The notes below the pieces were generated by a model. That model saw nothing but the letters and a program-made list of their open reading frames with translations, had not been told where the DNA came from and made no database searches. This document shows positions 26,571-64,000 of a DNA stretch of 64,000 nucleotides, piece after piece; positions within the stretch are counted from its first letter, which is position 1, and each line of letters begins with the position of its first letter. The stretch spans positions 58,301,078 to 58,365,077 of the forward strand of contig NC_134841.1 in assembly GCF_965363235.1 (NCBI RefSeq), given 5' to 3'. A program made the position numbers and the translations under genes. This DNA comes from Mytilus galloprovincialis. Lineage: Eukaryota > Mollusca > Bivalvia > Mytilida > Mytilidae.

Positions 26571-29500
26571 CATTAAAACCAGACAAAGATCTCTTATCTA
26601 GTTGGAGTTGACATAGCAAAAATGATTTGCAATTACCGGTACTAATAAATTAAACATTAAAACTACTGACCAAAAGTTTTCAAGCCCAGTGATAGCTGAC
26701 TGTTTTTTATTTTTTATTGACAGTATGATAAAATTTGTTTAAATAGAGGAATTATATACTTACTTGTATTTAAGATATCTTATACCACAAGTCTTACTAC
26801 CCTTCATGAAAACATTGGCACTGTTTTATAACCTAAAATGGAATTAAAATTGACACAAATTATATATTTGACAAATTTGTTAAATTGCCAGCCTAAATTT
26901 TTATTAATCTATTCTGTATTCTGATTGAGTAATAGTGAGGTGAGTTATCTCCCCATGAAAGAAACATTCTTGCTGTTTATTGTACTAGTCTCCCTTGAAG
27001 TAAAAATTCTATCAGGATTTACTTTTCATGGTATAAAATTTTTTTGTGTACCAGAAAAACATTTATCAAACTGATAAATATCTATTTTTGTGTGTTGTAA
27101 ATGTGCAAAATAACAAAAATGTGTGTTGCCTTACAGATAATCCTTATAGACTTTATCACATTTTTCCTGATAATGTACAGAATTAATTGGCTTGAAAATA
27201 CTTGCATTATTTCTTTCATGACAAAGCCTCAGACTTGTTTGAAGATTAATGTTATAAGTAATCTTCATTCCAGCTGCTATCCTTGCTGCTTGATTGCTTA
27301 CATGGCAAAGCCTCAGACTTGGTTGAAGATTTAATTAAACATCTTCCATGGAGTTGCTACTCATCTGCCATCTGGACTGAAACTTGGACTGGCTGGCTTC
27401 TTGAACAAAAACTATAATTATAAATTAAATTATATTTATAAGACTTCTGTTGGTTAATATAAATGAAATAGACATATATTCCTTCAAGCTTCATATCCTG
27501 ACCTACATCAACTGGGCCATTTTCAGCGTCTTATTTGGTGAACAATTGTAATTTTGTTGGTACTTCATTTTGTGGTTTAGTTAAAGCCTGCATACAAGTC
27601 TTTACAATATCATCAGTGTGATCATTTTAAAATTTTAGAACCTTTAGTCAACAACAAAAAACCATATGACCTCTTTCAACTTTAAGCCTAGTGCACGTTT
27701 TTATCCTGTAAACTTGTTTTATGATGATAAAATTTGTTTAAATAGAGGAATTATATACAGTTTACGTACTTGTATTTAAGATATCTTATACCACAAGTCT
27801 TACTCCCCTTCATGAAAACATTGGCACTGTTTTATAACCTAAAAAGGAATTAAAATTGACACAAATCATATATTTTACAAATTTGTTAAATTGCCAGCCT
27901 AAATTTTTATTAATCTATTCTGTATTCTGATTGTGTAATAGTGAGGTGAGTTATCTCCCCATGAAAGAAACATTCTTGCTGTTTATTGTACTAGTCTCCC
28001 TTAAAGTAAAAATTCTATTAGGATTTACTTTTCATGGTATAAAATTTTATTCCTGTACCAGAAAAACATTTATCAAACTGATAAATATCTATTTTTGTGT
28101 GTTGTAAATGTGCAAAATAACAAAAATGTGTGTTGCCTTACAGATATTCCTTATAGACTTTATCACATTTTTCCTGATAATGTACAGAATTAATTGGCTT
28201 AAATATACTTGCATTATTTCTTTCATGACAAAGCCTCAGACTTGTTTGAAGATCAATGTAATTATTAATCTTCATTCCAGCTGCTATCCTTGCTGCTTGA
28301 TTGCTTACATGGCAAAGCCTCGAACATCTTCCATGGAGTTGCTACTCATCTGCCATCTGGACTGAAATTTGGTTTGGACGGCTTCTTGAACAAAAACTAA
28401 AATTATCAATTAAATTATATTTATAAGACTTCTGTTGGTTAATTAGATAAATGAAATAGACATATATTCATTCAAGCTTCATATCCTGACCTACATCAAC
28501 GGGGCCATTTTCAGTGTCTTATTTGGTGAACAATTGTAATTTTGTTGGTACTTCATTTAGTGGTTTAGCCAAAGCCTGCATACAAATCTTTACAATAAAT
28601 TCAGTATGATCAATTCAAAATTTTAGAACCTTAGTCAACAACAAAAAACCATTTGACCTCATTCAACTTTAAGCCTAGTGTACGTTTTTATCCTGTAAAC
28701 TTGTTTTATGATGATAAAATTTGTTTAAATAGAGGAATTATATACGTACTTGTATTTAAGATATCTTATACCACAAGTCTTACTCCTCTTCATGAAAACA
28801 TTGGCACTGTTTTATAACCTAAAAAGGAATTAAAATTGACACAAATTATATATTTTACAAGTCTGTTAAATTGCCAGCCTAAATTTTTATTAATCTATTC
28901 TGTATTCTGATTGTGTAATAGTGAGGTGAGTTATCTCCCACTGAAAGAAACATTCTTGCTGTTTATTGTACTAGTCTCCCTTGAAGTAAAAATTCTATTA
29001 GGATTTACTTTTCATGGTATAAAATTTTATTCCTGTACCAGAAAAACATTTATCAAACTGATAAATATCTATTTTTGTGTGTTGTAAATGTGCAAAATAA
29101 CAAAAATGTGTGTTGCCTTACAAATATTCCTTATAGACTTTATCACATTTTTCCTGATAATGTACAGAATTAATTGGCTTAAATATACTTGCATTATTTC
29201 TTTCATGACAAAGCCTCAGACTTGTTTGAAGATCAATGTAATTATTAATCTTCATTCCAGCTGCTATCCTTGCTGCTTGATTGCTTACATGGCAAAGCCT
29301 CGAACATCTTCCATGGAGTTGCTACTCATCTGCCATCTGGACTGAAATTTGGTTTGGACGGCTTCTTGAACAAAAACTAAAATTATCAATTAAATTATAT
29401 TTATAAGACTTCTGTTGGTTAATTAGATAAATGAAATAGACATATATTCATTCAAGCTTCATATCCTGACCTACATCAACTGGGCCATTTTCAGCGTCTT

Positions 29501-30743
29501 ATTTGGTGAACAATTGTAATTTTGTTGGTACTTCATTTTGTGGTTTAGCCAAAACCTGCATACAAATCTTTACAATGAATTCAGTGTGATCAATTCAAAA
29601 TTTTAGAACCTTAGTCAACAACAAAAAACCATTTGACCTCTTTCAACTTTAAGCCTAGTGTACGTTTTTATCCTGTAAACTTGTTTTATGATGATAAAAT
29701 TTGTTTAAATAGAGGAATTATATACTTACTTGTATTTAAGATATCTTATACCACAAGTCTTACTCCCCTTCATGAAAACATTGGCACTGTTTTATAACCT
29801 AAAAAGGAATTAAAATTGACACAAATTATATATTTTACAAGTTTGTTAAATTGCCAGCCTAAATTTTTATTAATCTATTCTGTATTCTGATTGTGTAATA
29901 GTGAGGTGAGTTATCTCCCACTGAAAGAAACATTCTTGCTGTTTATTGTACTAGTCTCCCTTGAAGTAAAAATTCTATTAGGATTTACTTTTCATGGTAT
30001 AAAATTTTATTCCTGTACCAGAAAAACATTTATCAAACTGATAAATATCTATTTTTGTGTGTTGTAAATGTGCAAAATAACAAAAATGTGTGTTGCCTTA
30101 CAAATATTCCTTATAGACTTTATCACATTTTTCCTGATAATGTACAGAATTAATTGGCTTAAATATACTTGCATTATTTCTTTCATGACAAAGCCTCAGA
30201 CTTGTTTGAAGATCAATGTAATTATTAATCTTCATTCCAGCTGCTATCCTTGCTGCTTGATTGCTTACATGGCAAAGCCTCGAACATCTTCCATGGAGTT
30301 GCTACTCATCTGCCATCTGGACTGAAATTTGGTTTGGACGGCTTCTTGAACAAAAACTAAAATTATCAATTAAATTATATTTATAAGACTTCTGTTGGTT
30401 AATTAGATAAATGAAATAGACATATATTCATTCAAGCTTCATATCCTGACGTACATCAACTGGGCCATTTTCAGCGTCTTATTTGGTGAACAATTGTAAT
30501 TTTGTTGGTACTTCATTTTGTGGTTTAGCCAAAGCCTGCATACAAATCTTTACAATGAATTCAGTGTGATCAATTCAAAATTTTAGAACCTTAGTCAACA
30601 ACAAAAAACCATTTGACCTCTTTCAACTTTAAGCCTAGTGTACGTTTTTATCCTGTAAACTTGTTTTATGATGATAAAATTTGTTTAAATAGAGGAATTA
30701 TATACGTACTTGTATTTAAGATATCTTATACCACAAGTCTTAC

Positions 30744-30778
30744 TCCCCTTCATGAAAACATTGGCACTGTTTTATAAC
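30744..30778 (-). CDS. Possible 35-nt exon repeated in every ~980-bp unit
   Basis: It starts in phase 0 after TTTTAG and encodes VIKQCQCFHEG before a consensus donor GA|GTAAGAC. Equivalent segments occur in the other four units. Inclusion would leave phase 2, which gives early stops in both candidate last exons, so it is either non-functional or part of a poison exon. Low confidence. Confidence 0.2.
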
Positions 30779-31248
30779 CTAAAACAGAATTAAAATTGAC
30801 ACAAATTATATATTTTACAAGTTTGTTAAATTGCCAGCCTAAATTTTTATTAATCTATTCTGTATTCTGATTGTGTAATAGTGAGGTGAGTTATCTCCCA
30901 CTGAAAGAAACATTCTTGCTGTTTATTGTACTAGTCTCCCTTGAAGTAAAAATTCTATTAGGATTTACTTTTCATGGTATAAAATTTTATTCCTGTACCA
31001 GAAAAACATTTATCAAACTGATAAATATCTATTTTTGTGTGTTGTAAATGTGCAAAATAACAAAAATGTGTGTTGCCTTACAGATATTCCTTATAGACTT
31101 TATCACAATTTTCCTGATAATGTACAGAATTAATTGGCTTGAAAATACTTGCATTATTTCTTTCATGACAAAGCCTCAGACTTGTTTGAAGATCAATGCA
31201 ATAATTAATCTTCATTCCAGCTGCTATCCTTGCTGCTTGATTGCTTAC

Positions 31249-31403
31249 ATGGCAAAGCCTTGGACTTGGTTGAAGATCTAAGTAAACCTCTTCCATGGAG
31301 TTGCTACTCATCTGCCATCTCGACTGAAACTTGGACATTCCTTTAAGCTTCTTATCCAGATCTGTGTCAATGGCGCAATTTTCTGTGTCTTTGCTCTTTT
31401 TGC
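31249..31403 (-). CDS. Unknown minus-strand gene, 155-nt exon
   Basis: The exon is bounded by acceptor TTAATGAATTACAG and donor TGCCAT|GTAAGC and is open for 51 codons in one frame. The translation includes KKSKDTENCAIDTDLDKKL, GMSKFQSRWQMSSNSMEEVY and LDLQPSPRLCH. It needs one preceding base (phase 1) and ends in phase 0. The 78-nt exon at 43.2 kb leaves two bases, so the two cannot join directly. A 26-nt insert between them makes the phase fit. I do not recognise the protein; it is hydrophilic with no membrane segment. The adjoining ~980-bp array derives from this exon and its downstream intron. Confidence 0.55.
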
Positions 31404-31729: not shown

Positions 31730-32040
31730 AATTATATTTCATTAGAGAATAAATTTGAACAAGAAATTAACGACAATTTTGTGATAAAATTTCAAGTAGA
31801 CTTTCAAAGGAAAAACTGATTTTTATTACCTTAATTTTTTTTAAAAATAGTTTAAATACAATTGTTATGACCAAATACTTACATCATCATTATCTGGTAA
31901 CTAAAATGAAACCATCTTTCTTCAGGTGTAGGACTGAACTTTCATCTGTGCTCATCCATCTGTAATACAAACTTAAATCATCTTAATATTTATGAGACAA
32001 CAGTTAGTAAATTGAAAAAAAATATATACTTAACCTTGTG
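31730..32040 (-). pseudogene. Duplicated exon block with frameshifted copy of the 78-nt exon
   Basis: About 300 bp is related to 43010-43345, including intron flanks. The exon copy (31883-31959) keeps acceptor TTGTATTACAG and donor GATGAT|GTAAGT. It is 77 nt instead of 78: one base is missing in the CCT(G)ACACCT segment, which causes an early stop. Host-gene exon duplication followed by decay is the simplest explanation. Confidence 0.75.
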
Positions 32041-32070
32041 GACAATGTGTCAACCGGGAAAAAACACCAT

Positions 32071-32104
32071 ACACCTATAGAAAAAAGAAAGAAAAAAACA
32101 CCAT
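32071..32104. repeat. 34-bp direct repeat flanking the ~81-bp array, left
   Basis: ACACCTATAGAAAAAAGAAA then GAAAAAAACACCAT recurs at 38134-38167 with few changes, on the far side of the array. On the minus strand it reads as a polypyrimidine tract ending in CTATAG|GTG, itself a splice-acceptor-like sequence. Confidence 0.75.
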
Positions 32105-35100
32105 CCTGGACGCCACCTAGAGGAAATTTGGAGAAAAAAGCATACAAACACACAATCTTATCTTAACATACCTGCTGTCTGATCCTTTGACGCCACCTAG
32201 AGGAAATTTGGACAAAAATGCATACAAACACACAATCTTATCTTAACATACCTGTCCGTCCGATCTTTTGACACCACCTAGAGGAAATTTGGACAAAAAT
32301 GCATACAAACACACAATCTTATCTTAATATACCTTTCCGTTGGATCCTTTGACGGCACCTAGAAGAAACTTGGACAAAAATACATACAAACACACAATCT
32401 TATCTTAACATACCTTTCCGTTGGATCCTTTGACGGCACCTAGAGGAAATTTGGACAAAAATACATACAAACACACAATCTTATCTTAACATACCTTTTC
32501 GTTGGATCCTTTGACGGCACCTAAAGGAAATTTGGACAAAAATGCATACAAACACACAATCTTATCTTAACATACCTTTTCGTTGGATCCTTTGACGGCA
32601 CCTAGAGGAAATTTGGACAAAAATGCATACAAACACACAATCTTATCTTAACATACCTTTCCGTTGGATCCTTTGACGGCACCTAGAGGAAATTTGGACA
32701 AAAATGCATATAAACACACAATCTTATCTTAACATACCTTTTCGTTGGATCCTTTGACGGCACCTAGAGAAAACTTGGACAAAAAGGCATGTAAACACAC
32801 AATCTTATCTTAACATACCTTTCCTTTGGATCCTTTGAAGGCACCTAGAGGAAATTTGGACAAAAATGCATACAAACACACAATCTTATCTTAACATACC
32901 TTTCCGTTGGATCCTTTGACGGCACCTAGAGGAAATTTGGACAAAAATGCATACAAACACACAATCTTATCTTAACATACCTTTTCGTTGGATCCTTTGA
33001 CGGCACCTAAAGGAAATTTGGACAAAAATGCATACAAACACACAATCTTATCTTAACATACCTTTTCGTTGGATCCTTTGACGGCACCTAAAGGAAATTT
33101 GGACAAAAATGCATACAAACACACAATCTTATCTTAACATACCTTTCCGTTGGATCCTTTGACGACACCTAGAGGAAAATTTTGACAAAAATGCATACAA
33201 ACACACAATCTTATCTTAACATACCTTTCCGTTGGATCCTTTGACGGCACCTAGAGGAAATTTGGACAAAAATGCATACAAACACACAATCTTATCTTAA
33301 CATACCTTTCCGTTGGATAATTGGCGGCACCTAGAAGAAACTTGGACAAAAAGACATACAAACACACAATCTTATCTTAACATACCTTTCTGTTGGATCC
33401 TTTGATGTTACCTAGAGGAAATTTGGACAAAAATGCATACAAACACACAATCTTATCTTAACATACCTTTCCTTTGGATCCTTTGACGGCACCTAGAGGA
33501 AATTTGGACAAAAATGCATACAAACACACAATCTTATCTTAACATACCTTTTCGTTGGATCCTTTGACAGCACCTAGAGGAAACTTGGATAAAAAGGCAT
33601 ATAAACACACAATCTTATCTTAACATACCTTTCCTTTGGATCTTTTGACACCACCTAGAGGAAATTTGGACAAAAATGCATACAAACACACAATCTTATC
33701 TTAATATACCTTTCCGTTGGATCCTTTGACGGCACCTAGAAGAAACTTGGACAAAAATACATACAAACACACAATCTTATCTTAACATACCTTTCTGTTG
33801 GATCCTTTGACGGCACCTAGAAGAAACTTGGACAAAAAGACATACAAACACACAATCTTATCTTAACATACCTTTCCGTTGGATCCTTTGACGGCACCTA
33901 GAGGAAATTTGGACAAAAATGCATACAAACACACAATCTTATCTTAACATACCTTTTCGTTGGATCCTTTGACGGCACCTAAAGGAAATTTGGACAAAAA
34001 TGCATACAAACACACAATCTTATCTTAACATACCTCTCCGTTGGATCCTTTGACGGCACCTAGAGGAAATTTGGACAAAAATGCATACACACACACAATC
34101 TTATCTTAACATACCTTTCCGTTGGATCCTTTGACGGCACCTAGAGGAAATTTGGACAAAAATGCATACAAACACACAATCTTATCTTAACATACCTTTT
34201 CGTTGGATCCTTTGACGGCACCTAGAGAAAACTTGGACAAAAAGGCATATAAACACACAATCTTATCTTAACATACCTTTCCTTTGGATCCTTTGAAGGC
34301 ACCTAGAGGAAATTTGGACAAAAATGCATACAAACACACAATCTTATCTTAACATACCTTTCCGTTGGATCCTTTGACGGCACCTAGAAGAAACTTGGAC
34401 AAAAAGACATACAAACACACAATCTTATCTTAACATACCTTTCTGTTGGATCCTTTGATGTTACCTAGAGGAAATTTGGACAAAAATGCATACAAACACA
34501 CAATCTTATCTTAACATACCTTTCCTTTGGATCCTTTGATGGCACCTAGAGGAAATTTGGACAAAAATGCATACAAACACACAATCTTATCTTAACATAC
34601 CTTTTCGTTGGATCCTTTGACAGCACCTAGAGGAAACTTGGATAAAAAGGCATATAAACACACAATCTTATCTTAACATACCTTTCCTTTGGATCCTTTG
34701 AAGGCACCTAGAGGAAATTTGGACAAAAATGCATACAAAAACACAATCTTATCTTAACATACCTTTCCGTTGGATCCTTTGACGGCACCTAGAAGAAACT
34801 TGGACAAAAATACATACACACAATCTTATCTTAACATACCTTTCCGTTGGATCCTTTGACGGCACCTAGAAGAAACTTGGACAAAAAGACATACAAACAC
34901 ACAATCTTATCTTAACATACCTTTCCGTTGGATCCTTTGATGTCACCTAGAGGAAATTTGGACAAAAATGCATACAAACACACAATCTTATCTTAACATA
35001 CCTTTCCGTTGGATCCTTTGACGGCTACCTAGAGGAAATTTGGACAAAAATGCATACAAACACACAATCTTATCTTAACATACCTTTCCGTTGAATCCTT

Positions 35101-38040
35101 TGAAGGCACCTAGAGGAAATTTGGACAAAAATGCATACAAACATACACACAATCTTATCTTAACATACCTGCTGTCTGATCCTTTGACGCCACCTAGAGG
35201 AAATTTGGACACAAATGCAAACAAACACACAATCTTATCTTAACATACCTGTCTGTCCGATCTTTTGACACCACCTAGAGGAAATTTGGACAAAAATGCA
35301 TACAAACACACAATCTTATCTTAATATACCTTTCCGTTGGATCCTTTGACGGCACCTAGAAGAAACTTGGACAAAAATACATACAAACACACAATCTTAT
35401 CTTAACATACCTTTCCGTTGGATCCTTTGACGGCACCTAGAGGAAATTTGGACAAAAATGCATACAAACACACAATCTTATCTTAACATACCTTTCCGTT
35501 GGATCCTTTGACGGCACCTAGAGGAAATTTGGACAAAAATGCATACAAACACACAATCTTATCTTAACATACCTTTTCGTTGGATCCTTTGACGGCACCT
35601 AAAGGAAATTTGGACAAAAATGCATACAAACACACAATCTTATCTTAACATACCTCTCCGTTGGATCCTTTGACGGCACCTAGAGGAAATTTGGACAAAA
35701 ATGCATACAAACACACAATCTTATCTTAACATACCTTTCCGTTGGATCCTTTGACGGCACCTAGAGGAAATTTGGACAAAAATGCATACAAACACACAAT
35801 CTTATCTTAACATACCTTTTCGTTGGATCCTTTGACGGCACGTAGAGAAAACTTGGACAAAAAGGCATATAAACACACAATCTTATCTTAACATACCTTT
35901 CCTTTGGATCCTTTGAAGGCACCTAGAGGAAATTTGGACAAAAATGCATACAAACACACAATCTTATCTTAACATACCTTTCCGTTGGATCCTTTGACGG
36001 CACCTAGAAGAAACTTGGACAAAAATACATACAAACACACAATCTTATCTTAACATACCTTTCCGTTGGATCCTTTGACGGCACCTAGAGGAAATTTGGA
36101 CAAAAATGCATACAAACACACAATCTTATCTTAACATTACCTTTTCGTTGGATCCTTTGACGGCACCTAAAGGAAATTTGGACAAAAATGCATACAAACA
36201 CACAATCTTATCTTAACATACCTTTCCGTTGGATCCTTTGACGACACCTAGAGGAAAAATTTGACAAAAATGCATACAAACACACAATCTTATCTTAACA
36301 TACCTTTCCGTTGGATCCTTTGACGGCACCTAGAGGAAATTTGGACAAAAATGCATACAAACACACAATCTTATCTTAACATACCTTTCCGTTGGATCCT
36401 TTGACGGCACCTAGAAGAAACTTGGACAAAAATACATACAAACACACAATCTTATCTTAACATACCTTTCCGTTGGATCCTTTGACGGCACCTAGAAGAA
36501 ACTTGGACAAAAAGACATACAAACACACAATCTTATCTTAACATACCTTTCTGTTGGATCCTTTGATGTCACCTAGAGGAAATTTGGACAAAAATGCATA
36601 CAAACACACAATCTTATCTTAACATACCTTTTCGTTGGATCCTTTGACAGCACCTAGAGGAAACTTGGATAAAAAGGCATATAAACACACAATCTTATCT
36701 TAACATACCTTTCCTTTGGATCCTTTGAAGGCACCTAGAGGAAATTTGGACAAAAATGCATACAAACACACAATCTTATCTTAACATACCTTTCCGTTGA
36801 ATCCTTTGACGGCACCTAGAAGAAACTTGGACAAAAATACATACAAACACACAATCTTATCTTAACATACCTTTCCGTTGGATCCTTTGACGGCACCTAG
36901 AAGAAACTTGGACAAAAAGACATACAAACACACAATCTTATCTTAACATACCTTTCCGTTGGATCCTTTGATGTCACCTAGAGGAAATTTGGACAAAAAT
37001 GCATACAAACACACAATCTTATCTTAACATACCTTTCCGTTGGATCCTTTGACGGCTACCTAGAGGAAATTTGGACAAAAATGCATACAAACACACAATC
37101 TTATCTTAACATACCTTTCCGTTGGATCCTTTGACAGCACCTAGAGGAAACTTTGACAAAAAGGCATATAAACACACAATCTTATCTTAACATACCTTTC
37201 CGTTGAATCCTTTGAAGGCACCTAGAGGAGATTTGGACAAAAATGCATACAAACATACACACAATCTTATCTTAACATACCTGCTGTCTGATCCTTTGAT
37301 GCCACCTAGAGGAAATTTGGAGAAAAATGCATACAAACACACAATCTTATCTTAACATACCTGCTGTCTGATTCTTTGACGCCACCTAGAGGAAATTTGG
37401 ACAAAAATGCAAACAAACACACAATCTTATCTTAACATACCTGTCTGTCCGATCTTTTGACACCACCTAGAGGAAATTTGGACAAAAATACATACAAACA
37501 CACAATCTTATCTTAACATACCTTTCCGTTGCATCCTTTGAAGGCACCTAGAGGAAATTTGGACAAAAATGCATACAAACACACAATCTTATCTTAACAT
37601 ACCTGCTGTCTGATCCTTTGACGCCACCTAGAGGAAATTTGGACAAAAATGCATACAAACACACAATCTTATCTTAACATACCTTTCCGTTGGATCCTTT
37701 GACGGCACCTAGAAGAAACTTGGACAAAAATGCATACAAACACACAATCTTATCTTAACATACCTTTTCGTTGGATCCTTTGACGGCACCTAAAGGAAAC
37801 TTGGACAAAAAGGCATATAAACACACAATCTTATCTTAACATACCTTTCCGTTGGATCCTTTGAAGGCATCTAGAGGAAATTTGGAAAAAAGGCATACAA
37901 AAACACAATCTTATCTTAACATACCTTTCCTTTGGATCCTTGGACGCCACCTAGAGGAAACTTGGACAAAAAGGCATACAAACATGCACACAATCCTATC
38001 AAAACTTACCTGCTGTCTGATCCTGGACGCCACCTAAAAC
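32105..38040 (-). repeat. ~81-bp array of potential micro-exons, ~73 units
   Basis: The units are 80-82 bp. On the minus strand each reads: donor GTATGTTAAGATAAGATTG, a ~55-nt spacer ending in TTTTTGTCCAAATTTCCTC then TAG, and a segment of mostly 26 nt starting GTGCCGTCAAAGG and ending CCAACGGAAAG, then the next donor. The AG before and the GT after the segment are kept in nearly all units; changes fall mainly within the segment and the spacer. Variant segments are 24 nt (38010-38033), 25 nt (the CTGTCTGATCC units) and 27 nt (GTAGCCGTC units near 35023 and 37052). The array is in the orientation of the neighbouring exons at 43.2 and 31.3 kb. Whether any unit is spliced into mRNA is not shown by the sequence. 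Confidence 0.9.
38010..38033 (-). CDS. First micro-exon-like unit of the array, 24 nt
   Basis: The boundaries are TTATGTTTTAG|GTGGCG and GACAGCAG|GTAAGTTTTG, the strongest donor of the array. The segment is open as VASRIRQQ. It is the 5'-most unit in transcription direction. The last unit (near 32105-32120) carries a truncated version of the same variant (GTGGCGTCCAGGAT), so this variant bounds the array at both ends. Confidence 0.35.
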
Positions 38041-38064: not shown

Positions 38065-38089
38065 CTCACTTATAATTCTTTAAAGTGAC
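38065..38089 (-). pseudogene. Diverged micro-exon-like copy, 25 nt
   Basis: It has acceptor CATTTTCTATAG, a segment starting GTCACTTTAAAGAATT and ending AAGTGAG, and donor GTATAGC. The CTTTAAAG core aligns with CGTCAAAG of the array units. One frame contains TAA. Confidence 0.4.
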
Positions 38090-38133
38090 CTATAGAAAAT
38101 GGAAATAGATTAAAAAAAAAAGAAGAAAGAAAT

Positions 38134-38167
38134 ACACCTATAGGAAACAGAAAGAAAAAAACACCAT
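38134..38167. repeat. 34-bp direct repeat flanking the ~81-bp array, right
   Basis: ACACCTATAGGAAACAGAAA then GAAAAAAACACCAT is the partner of 32071-32104. Confidence 0.75.
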
Positions 38168-38193
38168 ACATATGAAAACATAAAAATGAAATA

Positions 38194-38930
38194 TACTGAG
38201 CCAAAAAAGTTTAGCAACACTTTTTTTTTCATTGTTATTTGTTGTTTCTGGTTTTTTTTTTTTATTAAACATCATTGATATAATCCTTAGTTTTACCTGA
38301 AATTTTAAAGAGTCGTACTTTTTGCCAGGTGATTGATTTCGTGCCATTTCAGCTTTGCACGTGTAATTGATGTTTTACTTTCTGTACCTGTACTTTAAAA
38401 ACAAATTTATATTTTTTTTGCACACACGTTCAGAAACACACCATTTGTAAGAAAAACACATAAAAGTTTAAAAAAATTGCATGAAGCGTCAACCATTCCT
38501 CTCGGAAAATGACGGTCAGATGGCTCTTGGAATGTGAGTGTTGCTGACGTCGTGGCTCGACTTTATGTGCATAAGTCAACAGTTTAGGGACTAGCAAACA
38601 AAAATCAACAAATTGCAACAACACAGGATAGGTCAATATGCCGTAGACCAAAAACAACAATCGTCAACATGTGGTAAGTTTTTTCTGGCCACAAGAGTAG
38701 TGCATTGACTAAGGGTAGCTGCACTTAGAACATGGCAGAGAAATTGATTTTGAATAACACTATACTCATTTCCGCATTTTGACCCTCCCGTGCTCCATAC
38801 AAAAAATATCCTAATGAATATGAGTGTTAAACATTCATGTTGCTTCTGACATGTCATAATTCCATTTTTTTTTATTATCTTTTTGTAATAAAATTTCATA
38901 TTTTTGTTGCTAAACTTTTTTAGCTCAGTA
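38194..38930 (+). mobile_element. Tc1/mariner transposon, degenerate
   Basis: The inverted ends are TACTGAGCCAAAAAAGTTTA (left) and TACTGAGCTAAAAAAGTTTA (reverse complement of right), both continuing GCAACA. TA is duplicated at 38192-38193 and 38931-38932. The interior (about 38520-38760, plus) retains traces of a Tc1 transposase N-terminal region, a helix-turn-helix-like VARLYVHKSTV followed by NKNQQ and RPKTT in broken frames with several stops. At 737 bp it is internally deleted. Confidence 0.8.
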
Positions 38931-38941
38931 TAGATATAAAC

Positions 38942-43009: not shown

Positions 43010-43345
43010 TACATTTCATTCGAGTATAAATTTGAAAAATAAATTTTGGACTAATTTGTAATGATTTTTCAAGCTGTTTCTCCAACGAATTTGAAAACTA
43101 ATTTTCAAGCCATTTCTCCAACTAATTTGAAAACTATTTTTTATTATCTAACAAATTTTAACATAGTTTCAAATACAATTGTAATCAGCAAATACTTACA
43201 TCATCATTATCTGGCAACTAAAATGAAATCGTCTGCCTGTAGGTGTCAGGACTGAACTTTCATCTGGGCTCATCCATCTGTAATACAAAAAAAAAATATT
43301 CTTATATGTATGAGAAAACAGTTAGTAATTGAAATAAAAAATATA
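43010..43345 (-). repeat. Parent block of the exon duplication
   Basis: It includes the 78-nt exon and flanking intron. It matches 31730-32040 in the same orientation with many substitutions, so the duplication is old. Confidence 0.75.
43200..43277 (-). CDS. Unknown minus-strand gene, 78-nt exon
   Basis: The exon has acceptor TTTGTATTACAG and donor GATGAT|GTAAGT. The one frame compatible with its neighbour at 47.2 kb is open throughout: WMSPDESSVLTPTGRRFHFS then CQIMM. It starts with the last base of a codon begun at 47189 (AG+A, Arg) and leaves two bases (AT) at its 3' end. A related, frameshifted copy lies 11 kb downstream. The protein family is not recognised. The TPTGRRFHFS segment looks like conserved globular sequence rather than low complexity. 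Confidence 0.6.
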
Positions 43346-43794
43346 CTTAAATCAAAGTTATATGAAGATATCCAAATTGACAATCAGAAGCTTTTCTTTT
43401 GTTCTGTTAGACTAAATTAGAGAAAAGATTTCCAAGCGCATGATACGCTGGACGCTTTTGAAGAATAAAGTTCCATAAGTCCTCAATGTTATAAATTTAT
43501 AAAAAAAAATAATTAAAGGAGGTTTAATTTAATAGGTAGAAACCCGTCACCAAATTTTCATGAAAACTGCTCAAAGCACTTGAGTTATTGTCTGAAAAAC
43601 GGGAAAATCCCCAATTTTTTTATGAATAAAATCTCATGACTTATAAAACACAAAATTCAAAATTTTTAAAGATTGAAAGGGAGCTTACCTCAAAACATTT
43701 TAAAAATAATTATCAAAGTTTTAATGCCAATTGGCATTTTGGAGTTATTGTTGGACAAGGTATACCATAATATGTCCCTTAAATGGGCGTATAA

Positions 43795-48586: not shown

Positions 48587-50690
48587 TTCTTCTTCTTCTG
48601 ATATACAGTTACAGCTTCATTGCTTGAAGATTACGAACTGTTAAATGCGCGGAGTATATGATTAAAAATATGAACAAAAATATATCTTTAAATTTGTCGA
48701 ATACTTGGTGATATTTACATGTAAGAAAACAACAAGTGATTAAAAAATATGTACATTGTTATTTATAGAATTACATTATGTTGTGGAGAACAGTTGGTGT
48801 CAACTGATCTCTATATGTTTCAATGGTTTGACATGCTACCACAACTTGTGGTAACAAGTTCCATTGGATGATTGTTTGTGGAAAGAATGACCATTTGTAG
48901 CTGTCTTTAGAGGTGGATATTTGCCTAAATGTTTGAGTATGAGATTTTCTTGTTCTAGTATCTAATGGTATGAGGACTAGTGATGGGATGGCAATGAGTC
49001 CATGAATGACCTTGTAGAACATGATAAGTCTGGTTTTGAGGCGGCGCTCAGTGAGTGAGGGCCATTGTAGTTCGTTTAACATGGATGTAACACTACTGGT
49101 GTTGTGGTAATTGTTACATACATATTGGGCCGCACGCCTCTGTACCATTTCAAGCTTATTTTATATTCTGCTGTGTGTGGATCCCATAAACTACAGGCAT
49201 ATTCAAGTTTTGGTCTCACTATTGATTGGTAAGCACGGGGTTTGATACTGGTGTTAGAAATTTTTAAGTTTCGCCTCAGAAAGCCAAGAGATTTATTTGC
49301 ATTTGATATGATGTTGTCGTAGTGATTGTTCCATTTTAAGTTAGACTGTAGGGTTACGCCGAGATATTTTGCAGATGTTACTGGTTCTAAAATATGGTTA
49401 TGTAGGATGTAATCGTGTTTAAATGGTTTCTTTTTTTGTGTGATGGTTAAGATTGTACATTTTCCTGGATGGAAGGCCATGAGCCAATCAGCCTCCCATT
49501 TAGCTGCTGCATTAAGATCTTTTTGTAAATTTGTGCAGTCTTGTTGACATGTAATTTCTCGGTATATAATACTATCATCAGCGAAGAGTCGTAATTTGCT
49601 GTGTTCGAGGTATTCTGGAAAATCGTTGATGTAAATTAAAAAGAGTATAGGCCCAAGGACGGTTCCTTGGGGGGACCCCTGATGTTACTGGTGCTGTATT
49701 TGATGTTATTTCGTCTATTACCACTGTTTGCGTACGGTCTGATAAGAAAGCCTGAATCCATTTTAGAGTGTTCCCTTGAATGCCATAGTATTTTAGTTTA
49801 TAGAGTAGACGTTTGTGGGGAACTTTATCGAAGGCCTTGGCAAAATCCATAATAATGAGGTCTGTTTGTATATTTTTGCTGTTGTTGTTATGAAGTTCTT
49901 GTATAAATTGAATAAGTTGTGATTCACATGATCTCGATTTCCCGAGACCATGTTGGAGGTCGTAGAGTATATGTTATTTGCCTCTAAATAGTTCATAATG
50001 TTACTTGTCACAATATGTTCCATCAATTTACAACAAATATAAGTGAGTGAAATTGGTCTATAATTTTCAGCCTTGTATCGTTCGCCCTTTTTAAATGCTG
50101 GTGCAACAATTGCATGTTTCCAGTCTTTTGGTGTTATTCCCGATTCCAGAGATTTGGTAAACATGGTGGTAAGGATAGGTGCTATTTGTGCTTTTAGTTC
50201 TTTTAATACACGTCCACTGATGTTATCTGGACCACTTGCTTTGTGTGGATTTAGTTTATGTAATAATTTTTCGACACCTGGTGTAGTGATGTTTATTTCT
50301 GGCATTTTTGTGTATGGGCTTGGACGCTTATCAGGAATATTTGATGGTGGTTCATTAGTAAATACTGACTGAAATTGTTGGTTAAGAATGTCTGCTTTTT
50401 CTGTAGTGTCTGTTACAAGTATACCTTCTTTTTTCAGAGGCGCAATTCCTGTATTATCATTTCTAGTGCTTTTGATGAACTGAAATAGCTTTTTTGGTTT
50501 TGTGTTTGTGGACTGATGTTGGTCCGGTTCATTGATTGGTAAATCACAAATAATTTGTTCTATGTAGTTCCAGTATGCCTTTCTTTGTTCTTTTTGTACT
50601 GTTTGTTTTAGTTTCTTGTATTTAGAAGGATTTCTATTTCTGTTTTTATAGCATTTTGACAGCCAATCGTAAGTAGAAATTGAAGAAAAT
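48587..50690 (-). mobile_element. CR1/Jockey-type LINE, 5'-truncated, frameshifted
   Basis: The reverse transcriptase reads on the minus strand in four frame pieces. 50690-49950: linker and fingers with NPHKASGPDNISGRVLKEL and FKKGERYKAENYRPISLT. 49850-49680: palm motif A with MDFAKAFDKVPHKRLLYKL and VTSGVP. 49675-49570: another frame, with the expected QG..LGP and LFADDS box. 49480-48771: thumb and C-terminal region with AFHPGKC, KYLGVTLQSNLKWNNH and RRAAQYVCNNYH. Frame breaks lie near 49945, in the G run at 49670-49675, and near 49130. The endonuclease is missing, and the 5' end abuts a GCCAATGAGACAACTC-type fragment at 50695. A (GAA)n-like tail at 48587-48600 marks the 3' end. Confidence 0.85.
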
Positions 50691-50694
50691 TGAA

Positions 50695-50745
50695 CATTAT
50701 GACTTGGATGAAGAGTTGTCTCTTTGGCTCTCATATCACATCTTA
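50695..50745 (-). repeat. GCCAATGAGACAACTC repeat fragment, reversed
   Basis: GACTTGGATGAAGAGTTGTC then TCATATCACATCTTATATC. It sits at the 5' truncation point of the LINE. Confidence 0.75.
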
Positions 50746-50929
50746 TATCTATTGGGGTCTTTCCACTGGTGATATGGAGGTCATGTATTTGCAGAAGGAT
50801 TCCAGTAACATACATCACATGAACATATTAAAAACAGTCGGGTCTAGGACCATTTCAGTCTAACATTATTATTATTCTTGAAATAAATTCCATTGTCTGT
50901 GAACATGTTTTAAGATGTATAATTTTGTA

Positions 50930-52279: not shown

Positions 52280-52805
52280 GGATGCTGGCTTCCAATTATT
52301 TATAGATTCTAGCATCCCAAAATATCCGGAAACTGACATCCTAACATATCTGGATGCTGGCATCCCAAAATATCCGGATGCTGGCATCCCAATATATCTG
52401 GATGCTGGCATCCCAATATATCTGAATGCTGGCATCCCAAAATATCCGGATGCTGGCATCCCAAAATATTCGGATGCTGGCATCCCAATATATCTGGATG
52501 CTGACATCCCAAACTATCCGGATACTGGCATCCCAATATATCTGAATGCTGGCATTCCAAAATATCCGGATGCTGGCATCCCAAAATATTCGGATGCTGG
52601 CATCCCAATATATCTGGATGCTGGCATCCCAAAATATCGGGATGCTGGCATCTCAATATATCTGGATGCTGGCATCCCAAAATATCGGGATGCTGGCATC
52701 TCAATATATCGGGATGCTGGCATCTCAATATATCTGAATGCTGACATACCAAAATATCCGATGCTGGCTTCCCAAAATATAGGGATTCTGGCATCACAAC
52801 CTTGC
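52280..52805 (+). repeat. 24-bp minisatellite, about 21 units
   Basis: The unit is GGATGCTGGCATCCCAAAAT plus ATCC, with common variants (ATATCT, ATTCGG, ATCGGG). Because the unit is a multiple of three, long ORFs open on both strands. The longest is 52278-52919 (plus, 213 codons, repeating DAGIPKYP/DAGIPIYL). There is no splice or start context and no non-repeat domain, so I treat the ORFs as by-products. GGATGCTGGCATCC is itself a near-palindrome (GGATGC..GCATCC). Confidence 0.9.
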
Positions 52806-63506: not shown

Positions 63507-64000
63507 TTAGTAACTTTCCACATCGGCAATTTGCGTGTTTGCGCTGCCTGTTTTCCCTTGATCAGCTTTGGTTGTACATACTGTGAATTTGTCTTTCAAT
63601 TGATCTCGAAACTGTTTAGACATCCCAATATAAACCCAAATATTCATCATGTATGAAACGTTTAGAGTGATATTACAAAACCATATACCCATTGATGTCT
63701 TGATCCATGTTGGCTGTGTTGGCAGGAAACTGTAGTAAAACAGCAACGCATTCGAAGGTAGCTCACCCAGTACAAAAATAAGCATAACCAGAACCAGCAT
63801 AACGGTTGTTCTGGCTTTGATTTGTCGGTTAGACGATTGACTTGACACCATCTGTCTTCTGTTAATAGTCAACAAGCAGATAACCATGGATATAGTTATT
63901 AAACATGCTGGTATGAGACCTAAAGTAACAAATCGTACAATAAAAAACATCTTCCAATAATCTTTGAACCAAACAATGTTTTCAATGCTACAGTACAAAG
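63507..64000 (-). CDS. Rhodopsin-family GPCR, C-terminal part (TM5-TM7), partial
   Basis: The final 163 codons of a seven-helix receptor are read on the minus strand. The gene continues past the window edge, so TM1-TM4 are not visible. Visible residues 18-43 form TM5 with a Pro at 30 (FVTLGLIPACLITISMVICL). A short third loop (RRQMVSSQSSNRQIKARTT) follows. TM6 at 66-91 keeps the helix proline (VLGELPSN) but lacks the CWxP tryptophan. TM7 at 104-126 ends NIWVY in place of NPxxY, followed by helix 8 (SKQFRDQL) and a 32-residue tail. The layout resembles FMRFamide/myosuppressin-type neuropeptide receptors of protostomes. The ligand cannot be told from this part. Plasma-membrane, G-protein-coupled signalling is expected. 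Confidence 0.85.
   Translation of the reverse strand, partial: LYCSIENIVWFKDYWKMFFIVRFVTLGLIPACLITISMVICLLTINRRQMVSSQSSNRQIKARTTVMLVLVMLIFVLGELPSNALLFYYSFLPTQPTWIKTSMGIWFCNITLNVSYMMNIWVYIGMSKQFRDQLKDKFTVCTTKADQGKTGSANTQIADVESY

What the first reader, a model, noticed from the sequence alone, without database searches (positions are those of the whole stretch)
32105..38040. About 73 tandem micro-exon-like units, each with both splice sites, in one 6-kb array
Read on the minus strand, nearly every ~81-bp unit consists of a consensus donor (GTATGTTAAG), a ~55-nt spacer with a pyrimidine-rich end and CTCTAG, and a 26-nt segment. The AG and GT are conserved while the segment and spacer vary. The array lies between exons of a gene on the same strand. 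A satellite in which every unit could be spliced as a micro-exon would generate an extreme range of isoforms, or a very long decoy intron. Alternatively, an exon with its flanks simply became a minisatellite and the splice sites persist only by array homogenisation.
Basis: partly seen in the sequence, partly recalled or inferred. Interest (0 to 1): 0.9.

Follow-up and report, generated by a model that had tools for sequence, protein, structure and literature searches.

The report
Minisatellite of 73 micro-exon-like units
A tiny exon-like sequence with its own splice signals has been copied 73 times head to tail, perhaps inside a gene; the DNA pattern is real, but nothing in hand shows that any copy is spliced into RNA.

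Summary
On the minus strand, 38033 to 32172, there are 73 complete units (47 distinct): a 24-27 nt exon-like segment (26 nt in 64 of 73), then a 51-59 nt intron-like spacer (55 nt in 65 of 73). GT is intact in 73 of 73, AG in 72 of 73. The splice anatomy is strand-specific; 23 of 20,000 random 81-mers from the window match it. The array lies between two copies (84% identical) of an exon-like segment, but its exon part is not significantly better conserved than its flanks (P = 0.25), so a host gene is not established.

A 24-position stretch, from the donor to intron +22, is unusually invariant (stratified scan P = 0.0004, units 2-73), more than a donor needs. 70 of 73 segments break frame; the full chain has stops in every frame.

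Best reading: a minisatellite grown from a micro-exon plus flanking intron. Closest precedent: the repeated 27-bp exon of Schistosoma SmPoMuc genes. RNA evidence is missing.

The parts
32172..38033 (-). array of 73 complete exon-plus-intron-like units, about 81 bp each (the last unit's intron-like part runs on to 32117)
   Evidence: TRF; explicit splitting at splice-like sites
38010..38033 (-). unit 1 exon-like segment, 24 nt, a multiple of three, with donor GTAAGT and a different acceptor (TTATGTTTTAG); the only TGCATG in the array lies in its downstream spacer
32103..32116 (-). truncated last exon-like segment (14 nt, GTGGCGTCCAGGAT, the same start as unit 1), then runs into a copy of the upstream flank
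   Evidence: read; unit 1 segment; context printed
37904..37924 (-). example (unit 2) of the invariant block at the start of the intron-like spacer, GTATGTTAAGATAAGATTGTG: 1 segregating site in 21 over units 2-73
   Evidence: match position
38089..38165 (-). upstream flank with pyrimidine-rich CTATAG|GT sites; part of it recurs directly after the array at about 32053-32104
   Evidence: sequence read by eye
43200..43277 (-). exon-like segment A (78 nt) upstream of the array
   Evidence: copy A' is 69 of 78 identical, flanks in the aligned core 119 of 146, P = 0.25
31883..31959 (-). exon-like segment A' (77 nt), second copy directly downstream of the array; one base shorter, so its reading frame is shifted
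31249..31403 (-). exon-like segment B; open for 110 aa if read on to 31078
26725..31334 (-). 980-bp tandem repeat of about 4.7 copies, each with a version of the 3' part of segment B

Best explanation
A micro-exon (of the unit-1 type, 24-26 nt) together with a short piece of intron was caught in tandem duplication and grew by unequal exchange into a minisatellite of 73 units, probably on the sense strand of a transcribed region. The copies keep both splice sites mainly because they descend from one exon and are homogenised. In a transcript the array most likely behaves as a long intron full of competing sites: mostly removed whole or in long skips, with occasional inclusion of one or a few segments. 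Shown: the array, its splice-like anatomy, its strand specificity, and duplicated exon-like segments on both sides. Inferred: transcription, origin from a real exon, and removal as intron.
For: The unit's donor score is reached by 0.49% of 6151 GTs outside the array and its acceptor score by 4.0% of 5821 AGs; 23 of 20,000 random 81-mers have both at this strength with micro-exon geometry. The plus-strand reading has one GT (score -7.0) and no acceptor above -0.7. G+C is 50.7% in segments and 30.5% in spacers. Unit 1 is the most divergent of the 73 from the consensus (18 differing alignment columns, next 12), and it and the truncated last segment share GTGGCGTCCAGGAT, as expected at the edges of an exchange array. 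GT plus AG show 1 segregating site of 4 against 1.86 expected, P = 0.33. 70 of 73 segment lengths break frame. The locus is prone to tandem duplication: the 980-bp repeat and the A/A' copies.
Against: The invariance is not uniform. Units 2-73 carry 1 segregating site in the first 21 intron positions, against 16 of 26 in the segment and 16 of 34 in the rest of the intron. The cold stretch of 24 positions has scan P = 0.0004 after stratifying by base composition; pure homogenisation does not predict that. All 4 segregating sites in the pyrimidine tract are C/T swaps, against 19 transitions and 21 transversions elsewhere, about 0.05 by chance. Of 73 segments, 66 have no stop in any frame and none of 5329 ordered junctions makes one; a shuffled consensus segment is stop-free 24% of the time. 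The host gene is not established: exon part of A against flanks, P = 0.25; no family match.
Confidence: 0.53

Rival explanations
1. Functional micro-exon array: segments are regularly spliced into mRNA in variable number, as in SmPoMuc genes, giving repeat-length protein variants.
For: Both splice sites are intact in 72 of 73 units; 66 of 73 segments and all 5329 junctions are stop-free in every frame; pyrimidine tract changes stay pyrimidine; segments vary more than introns (16 of 26 vs 17 of 55 sites, Fisher P = 0.015); precedent in PMC2576457.
Against: 26 nt breaks frame; the full chain has 2, 3 and 2 stops; 55-nt introns with few yUnAy branch-site matches (15 over 73 acceptors); GT/AG not specially conserved; the excess of segment variation is weaker once base composition is controlled (P = 0.05), and both CpGs of the unit lie in the segment.
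Confidence: 0.2
2. The array matters at the DNA level: the invariant block holds AGATAAG, a GATA-factor site (motif recalled), so the array would be a string of factor-binding sites, and the donor is conserved because it lies in the same block.
For: AGATAAG occurs 72 times in the array; the block is the coldest part of the unit and reaches well past the donor.
Against: WGATAR occurs 3.6 times per kb outside the array, so one site in an 81-bp unit is not surprising. Unit 1 lacks it (GATAGG). No binding or reporter data.
Confidence: 0.12
3. Chance: an unrelated minisatellite whose unit happens to contain donor- and acceptor-like words.
For: One unit is one event; with 23 TRF rows in the window a 0.1% coincidence per unit is not negligible. 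The exon status of the neighbours is not established.
Against: Strand specificity and G+C contrast; exon-like neighbours on the same strand.
Confidence: 0.12

Closest known systems
SmPoMuc polymorphic mucin genes of Schistosoma mansoni (PMC2576457 and PMC4015677, passages read)
   Same: [quoted passage not shown] intronic parts are over 94% identical; transcripts carry variable numbers of the exon.
   Different: There the repeat is about 1 kb, at most about 20 copies, exon a multiple of three, coding and expressed. Here 81 bp, 73 copies, mostly 26 nt, expression unknown.
Schistosome micro-exon genes and antigen 10-3 with 27-bp exons and 81-base repeats (PMC10526429 and PMC4015677, passages read; Davis 1988 seen only as a reference title)
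   Same: Many very small exons, some tandemly repeated.
   Different: Exons mostly multiples of three and introns 0.1-5 kb, neither met here; signal peptide, not tested here.
Epstein-Barr virus IR1 W repeats encoding EBNA-LP (PMC5834210, passages read)
   Same: Every unit of a tandem repeat carries its own exons; units can be included or skipped.
   Different: Viral, about 6.6 units with a promoter in each, proven transcripts.
Mutually exclusive exons enforced by a branch point too close to the donor, as in OGDH exons 4a/4b (PMC7969005, passages read)
   Same: The commonest UnA words of the spacer lie 8-14 nt after the donor, well below the roughly 50-nt steric limit quoted there.
   Different: Two exons, mapped branch points; here no branch point is mapped and the match is only a three-base word.
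Intronic minisatellites near alternative splicing (CeRep25B in C. elegans, PMC4039745; earthworm metallothionein intron repeats, PMC12783039; passages read)
   Same: Tandem repeats in introns linked or possibly linked to splicing or recombination.
   Different: In the passages read, their units are not described as carrying complete exon anatomy.

Membership tests
minisatellite / VNTR | Head-to-tail array of units of roughly 10-100 bp, many copies, high similarity | tested here: met
   period 81, 72.5 copies, 92% matches
minisatellite / VNTR | Copy number varies between individuals | not testable with these tools
   one haplotype only; no genome is held
Tandemly repeated micro-exon gene (SmPoMuc type) | Each genomic repeat unit holds one small exon with its own acceptor and donor | tested here: inconclusive
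   signals present: GT 73 of 73, AG 72 of 73; that they are exons is not shown
Tandemly repeated micro-exon gene (SmPoMuc type) | Exon length keeps the frame (multiple of three) | tested here: not met
   3 of 73 segments (27, 27 and 24 nt); the other 70 do not
Tandemly repeated micro-exon gene (SmPoMuc type) | Repeat exons present in transcripts in variable number | not testable with these tools
   no RNA data
Schistosome micro-exon gene (MEG) | Introns 0.1-5 kb between the small exons | tested here: not met
   51-59 nt spacers
Schistosome micro-exon gene (MEG) | N-terminal signal peptide | not tested
   no first exon identified
Mutually exclusive exons by steric hindrance | Branch point under about 50 nt from the upstream donor | tested here: inconclusive
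   UnA words at 42, 47 and 48 nt upstream of 65, 67 and 68 of 73 acceptors, that is +14, +9 and +8 in a 55-nt spacer; strict yUnAy is rare; nothing mapped

The most novel reading that the evidence does not exclude
The array is a spliced micro-exon bank with a built-in rule. The only common branch-like words of each 55-nt spacer lie inside the invariant donor block (+8 to +14), too close to the donor of the same spacer. Neighbouring segments then could not be joined, while segments two or more units apart could. Each mRNA would pick one or a few non-adjacent micro-exons out of 73, usually shifting the frame. This would explain why the block is cold well beyond the donor itself, and would fit the 49 of 72 acceptors of units 2-73 with no AG in the 39-44 nt before them (the other 23 have an AG 10 nt before).
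Probability: 0.08. Interest if true: 0.88.

Novelty: new variant of a known kind. Interest (0 to 1): 0.46.

Why it matters
If spliced, it would be an exceptionally dense bank of repeated micro-exons and a natural test of how spliceosomes choose among dozens of near-identical sites 81 bp apart. If not spliced, it is still a clean natural case of a complete exon-like unit amplified into a satellite: the splice signals have stayed intact across 73 copies, and a comparison between individuals could separate selection from homogenisation.

Tried and rejected
Exon conservation as proof of a gene: my first comparison of A with A' (Fisher) gave 69 of 78 exon against 131 of 194 flank columns, P = 0.0003. 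That stretch ran past the ends of the aligned core and counted unalignable edge columns against the flanks. Limited to the BLAST core (43130-43350 with 31812-32033) it is 69 of 78 against 119 of 146, P = 0.25, and without gap columns 69 of 77 against 119 of 142, P = 0.31.

Assembly artefact by duplicated reads: 47 of 73 units are distinct, and no run of 3 or more consecutive identical units recurs, so a stuttered assembly is unlikely. It is not excluded.

A coding reading of the whole chain: rejected as an uninterrupted frame (2, 3 and 2 stops). Selection against stops: 1 of 19 distinct substitutions seen in the 26-nt segments makes a stop against 12 of 78 possible, too few to conclude.

Unspliced coding reading: no stop-to-stop frame of 120 aa or more lies in the array; those of 40 aa or more that overlap it are at most 65 aa.

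Known RNA genes: no Rfam family at gathering score in the window and no tRNA by ARAGORN. A dispersed repeat: no copy of the 19-nt donor block elsewhere in the window with up to 3 mismatches; no exact match in viral contigs; one exact match in a bacterial contig, about what chance gives in 257 billion bases (my estimate, about 2). No eukaryote collection could be searched.

Gene identity: of 8 proteins given to Pfam, only the reverse transcriptase piece passed its curated cut-off. These 8 were chosen by eye, not all open frames of the window. Segments A and B match no family above cut-off.

Limits of method: splice-site scores use generic metazoan matrices recalled from memory, not trained on this species. 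The limits of the cold block were chosen after looking; the scan statistic allows for that, but leaving out unit 1 matters: with unit 1 included the longest stretch is 13 positions and P = 0.06 (unstratified; the stratified scan was run only on units 2-73). Event counts on a FastTree tree point the same way (donor positions P = 0.03 and GT plus AG P = 0.26 in units 2-73; 0.15 and 0.21 with unit 1) but are inflated by exchange between units.

In notebook entry 1 I gave segment A' as 31968-31890; the right limits, read, are 31959-31883. That note also carries the withdrawn exon-against-flank counts.
Full report
WHAT IS THERE. Tandem Repeats Finder reports an array at 32109-37984, period 81, 72.5 copies. 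Read on the minus strand and cut at its splice-like sites it gives 73 complete exon-like segments, from 38033-38010 to 32196-32172. Each is followed by an intron-like spacer, 55 nt in 65 of 73 units; the segment is 26 nt in 64 of 73. A truncated 14-nt segment ends the array at 32116-32103 (sequence). GT is present in 73 of 73 and AG in 72 of 73. There are 47 distinct units among 73, and no run of three or more consecutive identical units recurs in the array.

IS THE UNIT EXON-LIKE BEYOND CHANCE? With generic splice matrices (recalled, not species-trained), 0.49% of 6151 GTs outside the array reach the unit's donor score and 4.0% of 5821 AGs reach its acceptor score, both strands counted. Of 20,000 random 81-mers drawn from the rest of the window, 23 have both at this strength with a 12-41 nt exon. 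Read the other way the unit has one GT, of very poor score, and two poor AGs. G+C is 50.7% in segments and 30.5% in spacers. So the unit is probably derived from a micro-exon. Since the array is one event and the window has 23 TRF rows, chance is not excluded.

ARE THE SPLICE SITES SELECTED? In units 2-73, 33 of 81 consensus positions segregate: 16 of 26 in the segment, 1 of 21 in the first part of the intron, 16 of 34 in the rest. G and C positions segregate far more than A and T (22 of 31 vs 11 of 50), so I permuted within base classes. GT plus AG: 1 of 4, expected 1.86, P = 0.33. Donor +1 to +6: 1 of 6, P = 0.21. Pyrimidine tract: 4 of 8, P = 0.87 on the low side. First 21 intron positions: 1 of 21, expected 7.5, P = 0.0002; of these, +7 to +21 alone: 0 of 15, P = 0.0004. 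A scan for the longest stretch with at most one segregating site gives 24 positions (last two of the segment to intron +22), P = 0.0004. The splice dinucleotides as such are thus not specially conserved, but a block made of the donor and the next 15 or so bases is. Including unit 1, whose donor region differs at four positions, weakens this to P = 0.06 in the unstratified scan. The segment is slightly more variable than expected (P = 0.05), which includes both CpGs of the unit. The 4 substitutions in the pyrimidine tract are all C/T swaps, against 19 transitions and 21 transversions elsewhere.

CODING SENSE. A chain of all 73 segments has 2, 3 and 2 stops in the three frames. The stop words lie in 7 of 73 segments; the other 66 have none in any frame, and none of 5329 ordered junctions creates one. 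A shuffled consensus segment is stop-free 24% of the time, so this is no proof. Only 3 of 73 lengths are multiples of three.

SURROUNDINGS. An exon-like segment A at 43277-43200 has a second copy A' at 31959-31883, just beyond the array, within a matching stretch of 224 columns at 84% identity. Acceptor and donor words are the same in both copies. I first took the exon part to be better conserved than its flanks; a check limited to the aligned core gives 69 of 78 against 119 of 146, P = 0.25, so this is not evidence of a real exon. A' lacks one base, which shifts the frame. Further downstream, segment B (31403-31249) is followed by about 4.7 copies of a 980-bp tandem repeat, each holding a version of its 3' part. 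The array therefore sits in a stretch of exon-like pieces that have been multiplied, all on one strand, but a gene is not established and no protein family identifies one. The edges of the array show local duplication: the pyrimidine-rich upstream flank recurs in part just after the last truncated segment (sequence), and a 28-nt inverted pair at 38192-38219 and 38905-38932 may mark a small transposon beside it.

HOW IT MOST LIKELY WORKS. I think a micro-exon and a short piece of intron were amplified by tandem duplication and unequal exchange, and that the splice sites persist mainly by common descent. In a transcript the array would mostly be removed as intron, with occasional inclusion. Transcription, origin and removal are inferred. 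One observation resists this: the cold block. The commonest UnA words of the spacer, the core of an animal branch site (recalled), lie in that block, 42-48 nt before the next acceptor in 65 to 68 of 73 cases and only 8-14 nt after the donor. Strict yUnAy matches are rare (15 over 73 acceptors). In units 2-73, 49 of 72 acceptors have no AG in the 39-44 nt before them; the other 23 have one 10 nt before. PMC7969005 (passages read) quotes a steric limit of about 50 nt between donor and branch point and reports that closer branch points enforce mutually exclusive splicing of two exons. If the same held here, adjacent segments could not be joined but more distant ones could. That is the boldest reading and untested. 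A GATA-like word in the same block (72 AGATAAG) is an alternative cause of its invariance.

COMPARISON. The nearest precedent is SmPoMuc of Schistosoma mansoni: a 27-bp exon with its introns in about 1-kb genomic repeats, at most about 20 copies, transcripts with 1-100 repeats (PMC2576457, passages read). Epstein-Barr virus W repeats (PMC5834210, passages) also carry exons in every unit. The present array shares the principle and differs in density, copy number, frame and lack of RNA evidence. In nine paper searches I saw, among the titles and abstract starts listed, no report of such an array in a mussel; the lists were capped and the library holds only part of the literature.

VERDICT. Observation confirmed; interpretation partly supported; a new variant of a known kind if spliced, otherwise an exon-derived minisatellite.

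Noticed in passing
26725-31334: A 980-bp tandem repeat, about 4.7 copies, 95.8-99.0% identity between aligned copies; relative to segment B, three of the four further copies have a 22-nt deletion and the fourth an in-frame stop.
   Followed up: partly
38192-38932: 28-nt inverted pair, 96% complementary, 685 nt between the arms: looks like the ends of a small DNA transposon next to the array.
   Followed up: no
52305-52799: 24-bp minisatellite, 20.7 copies, 84% matches, with open frames on both strands (170 aa minus, 217 aa plus).
   Followed up: no
48771-50827: Overlapping open pieces on the minus strand that look like a broken retrotransposon gene; the one piece tested (49076-49684) matches RVT_1, E = 6.5e-12.
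   Followed up: no
63767-63919: Exon-like stretch on the minus strand with a weak 7tm_1 match (E = 0.0048, below the curated cut-off), perhaps part of a receptor gene.
   Followed up: no
L001:5755-5773: One exact 19-mer match to the donor block in a bacterial contig; expected by chance in a collection of that size.
   Followed up: no
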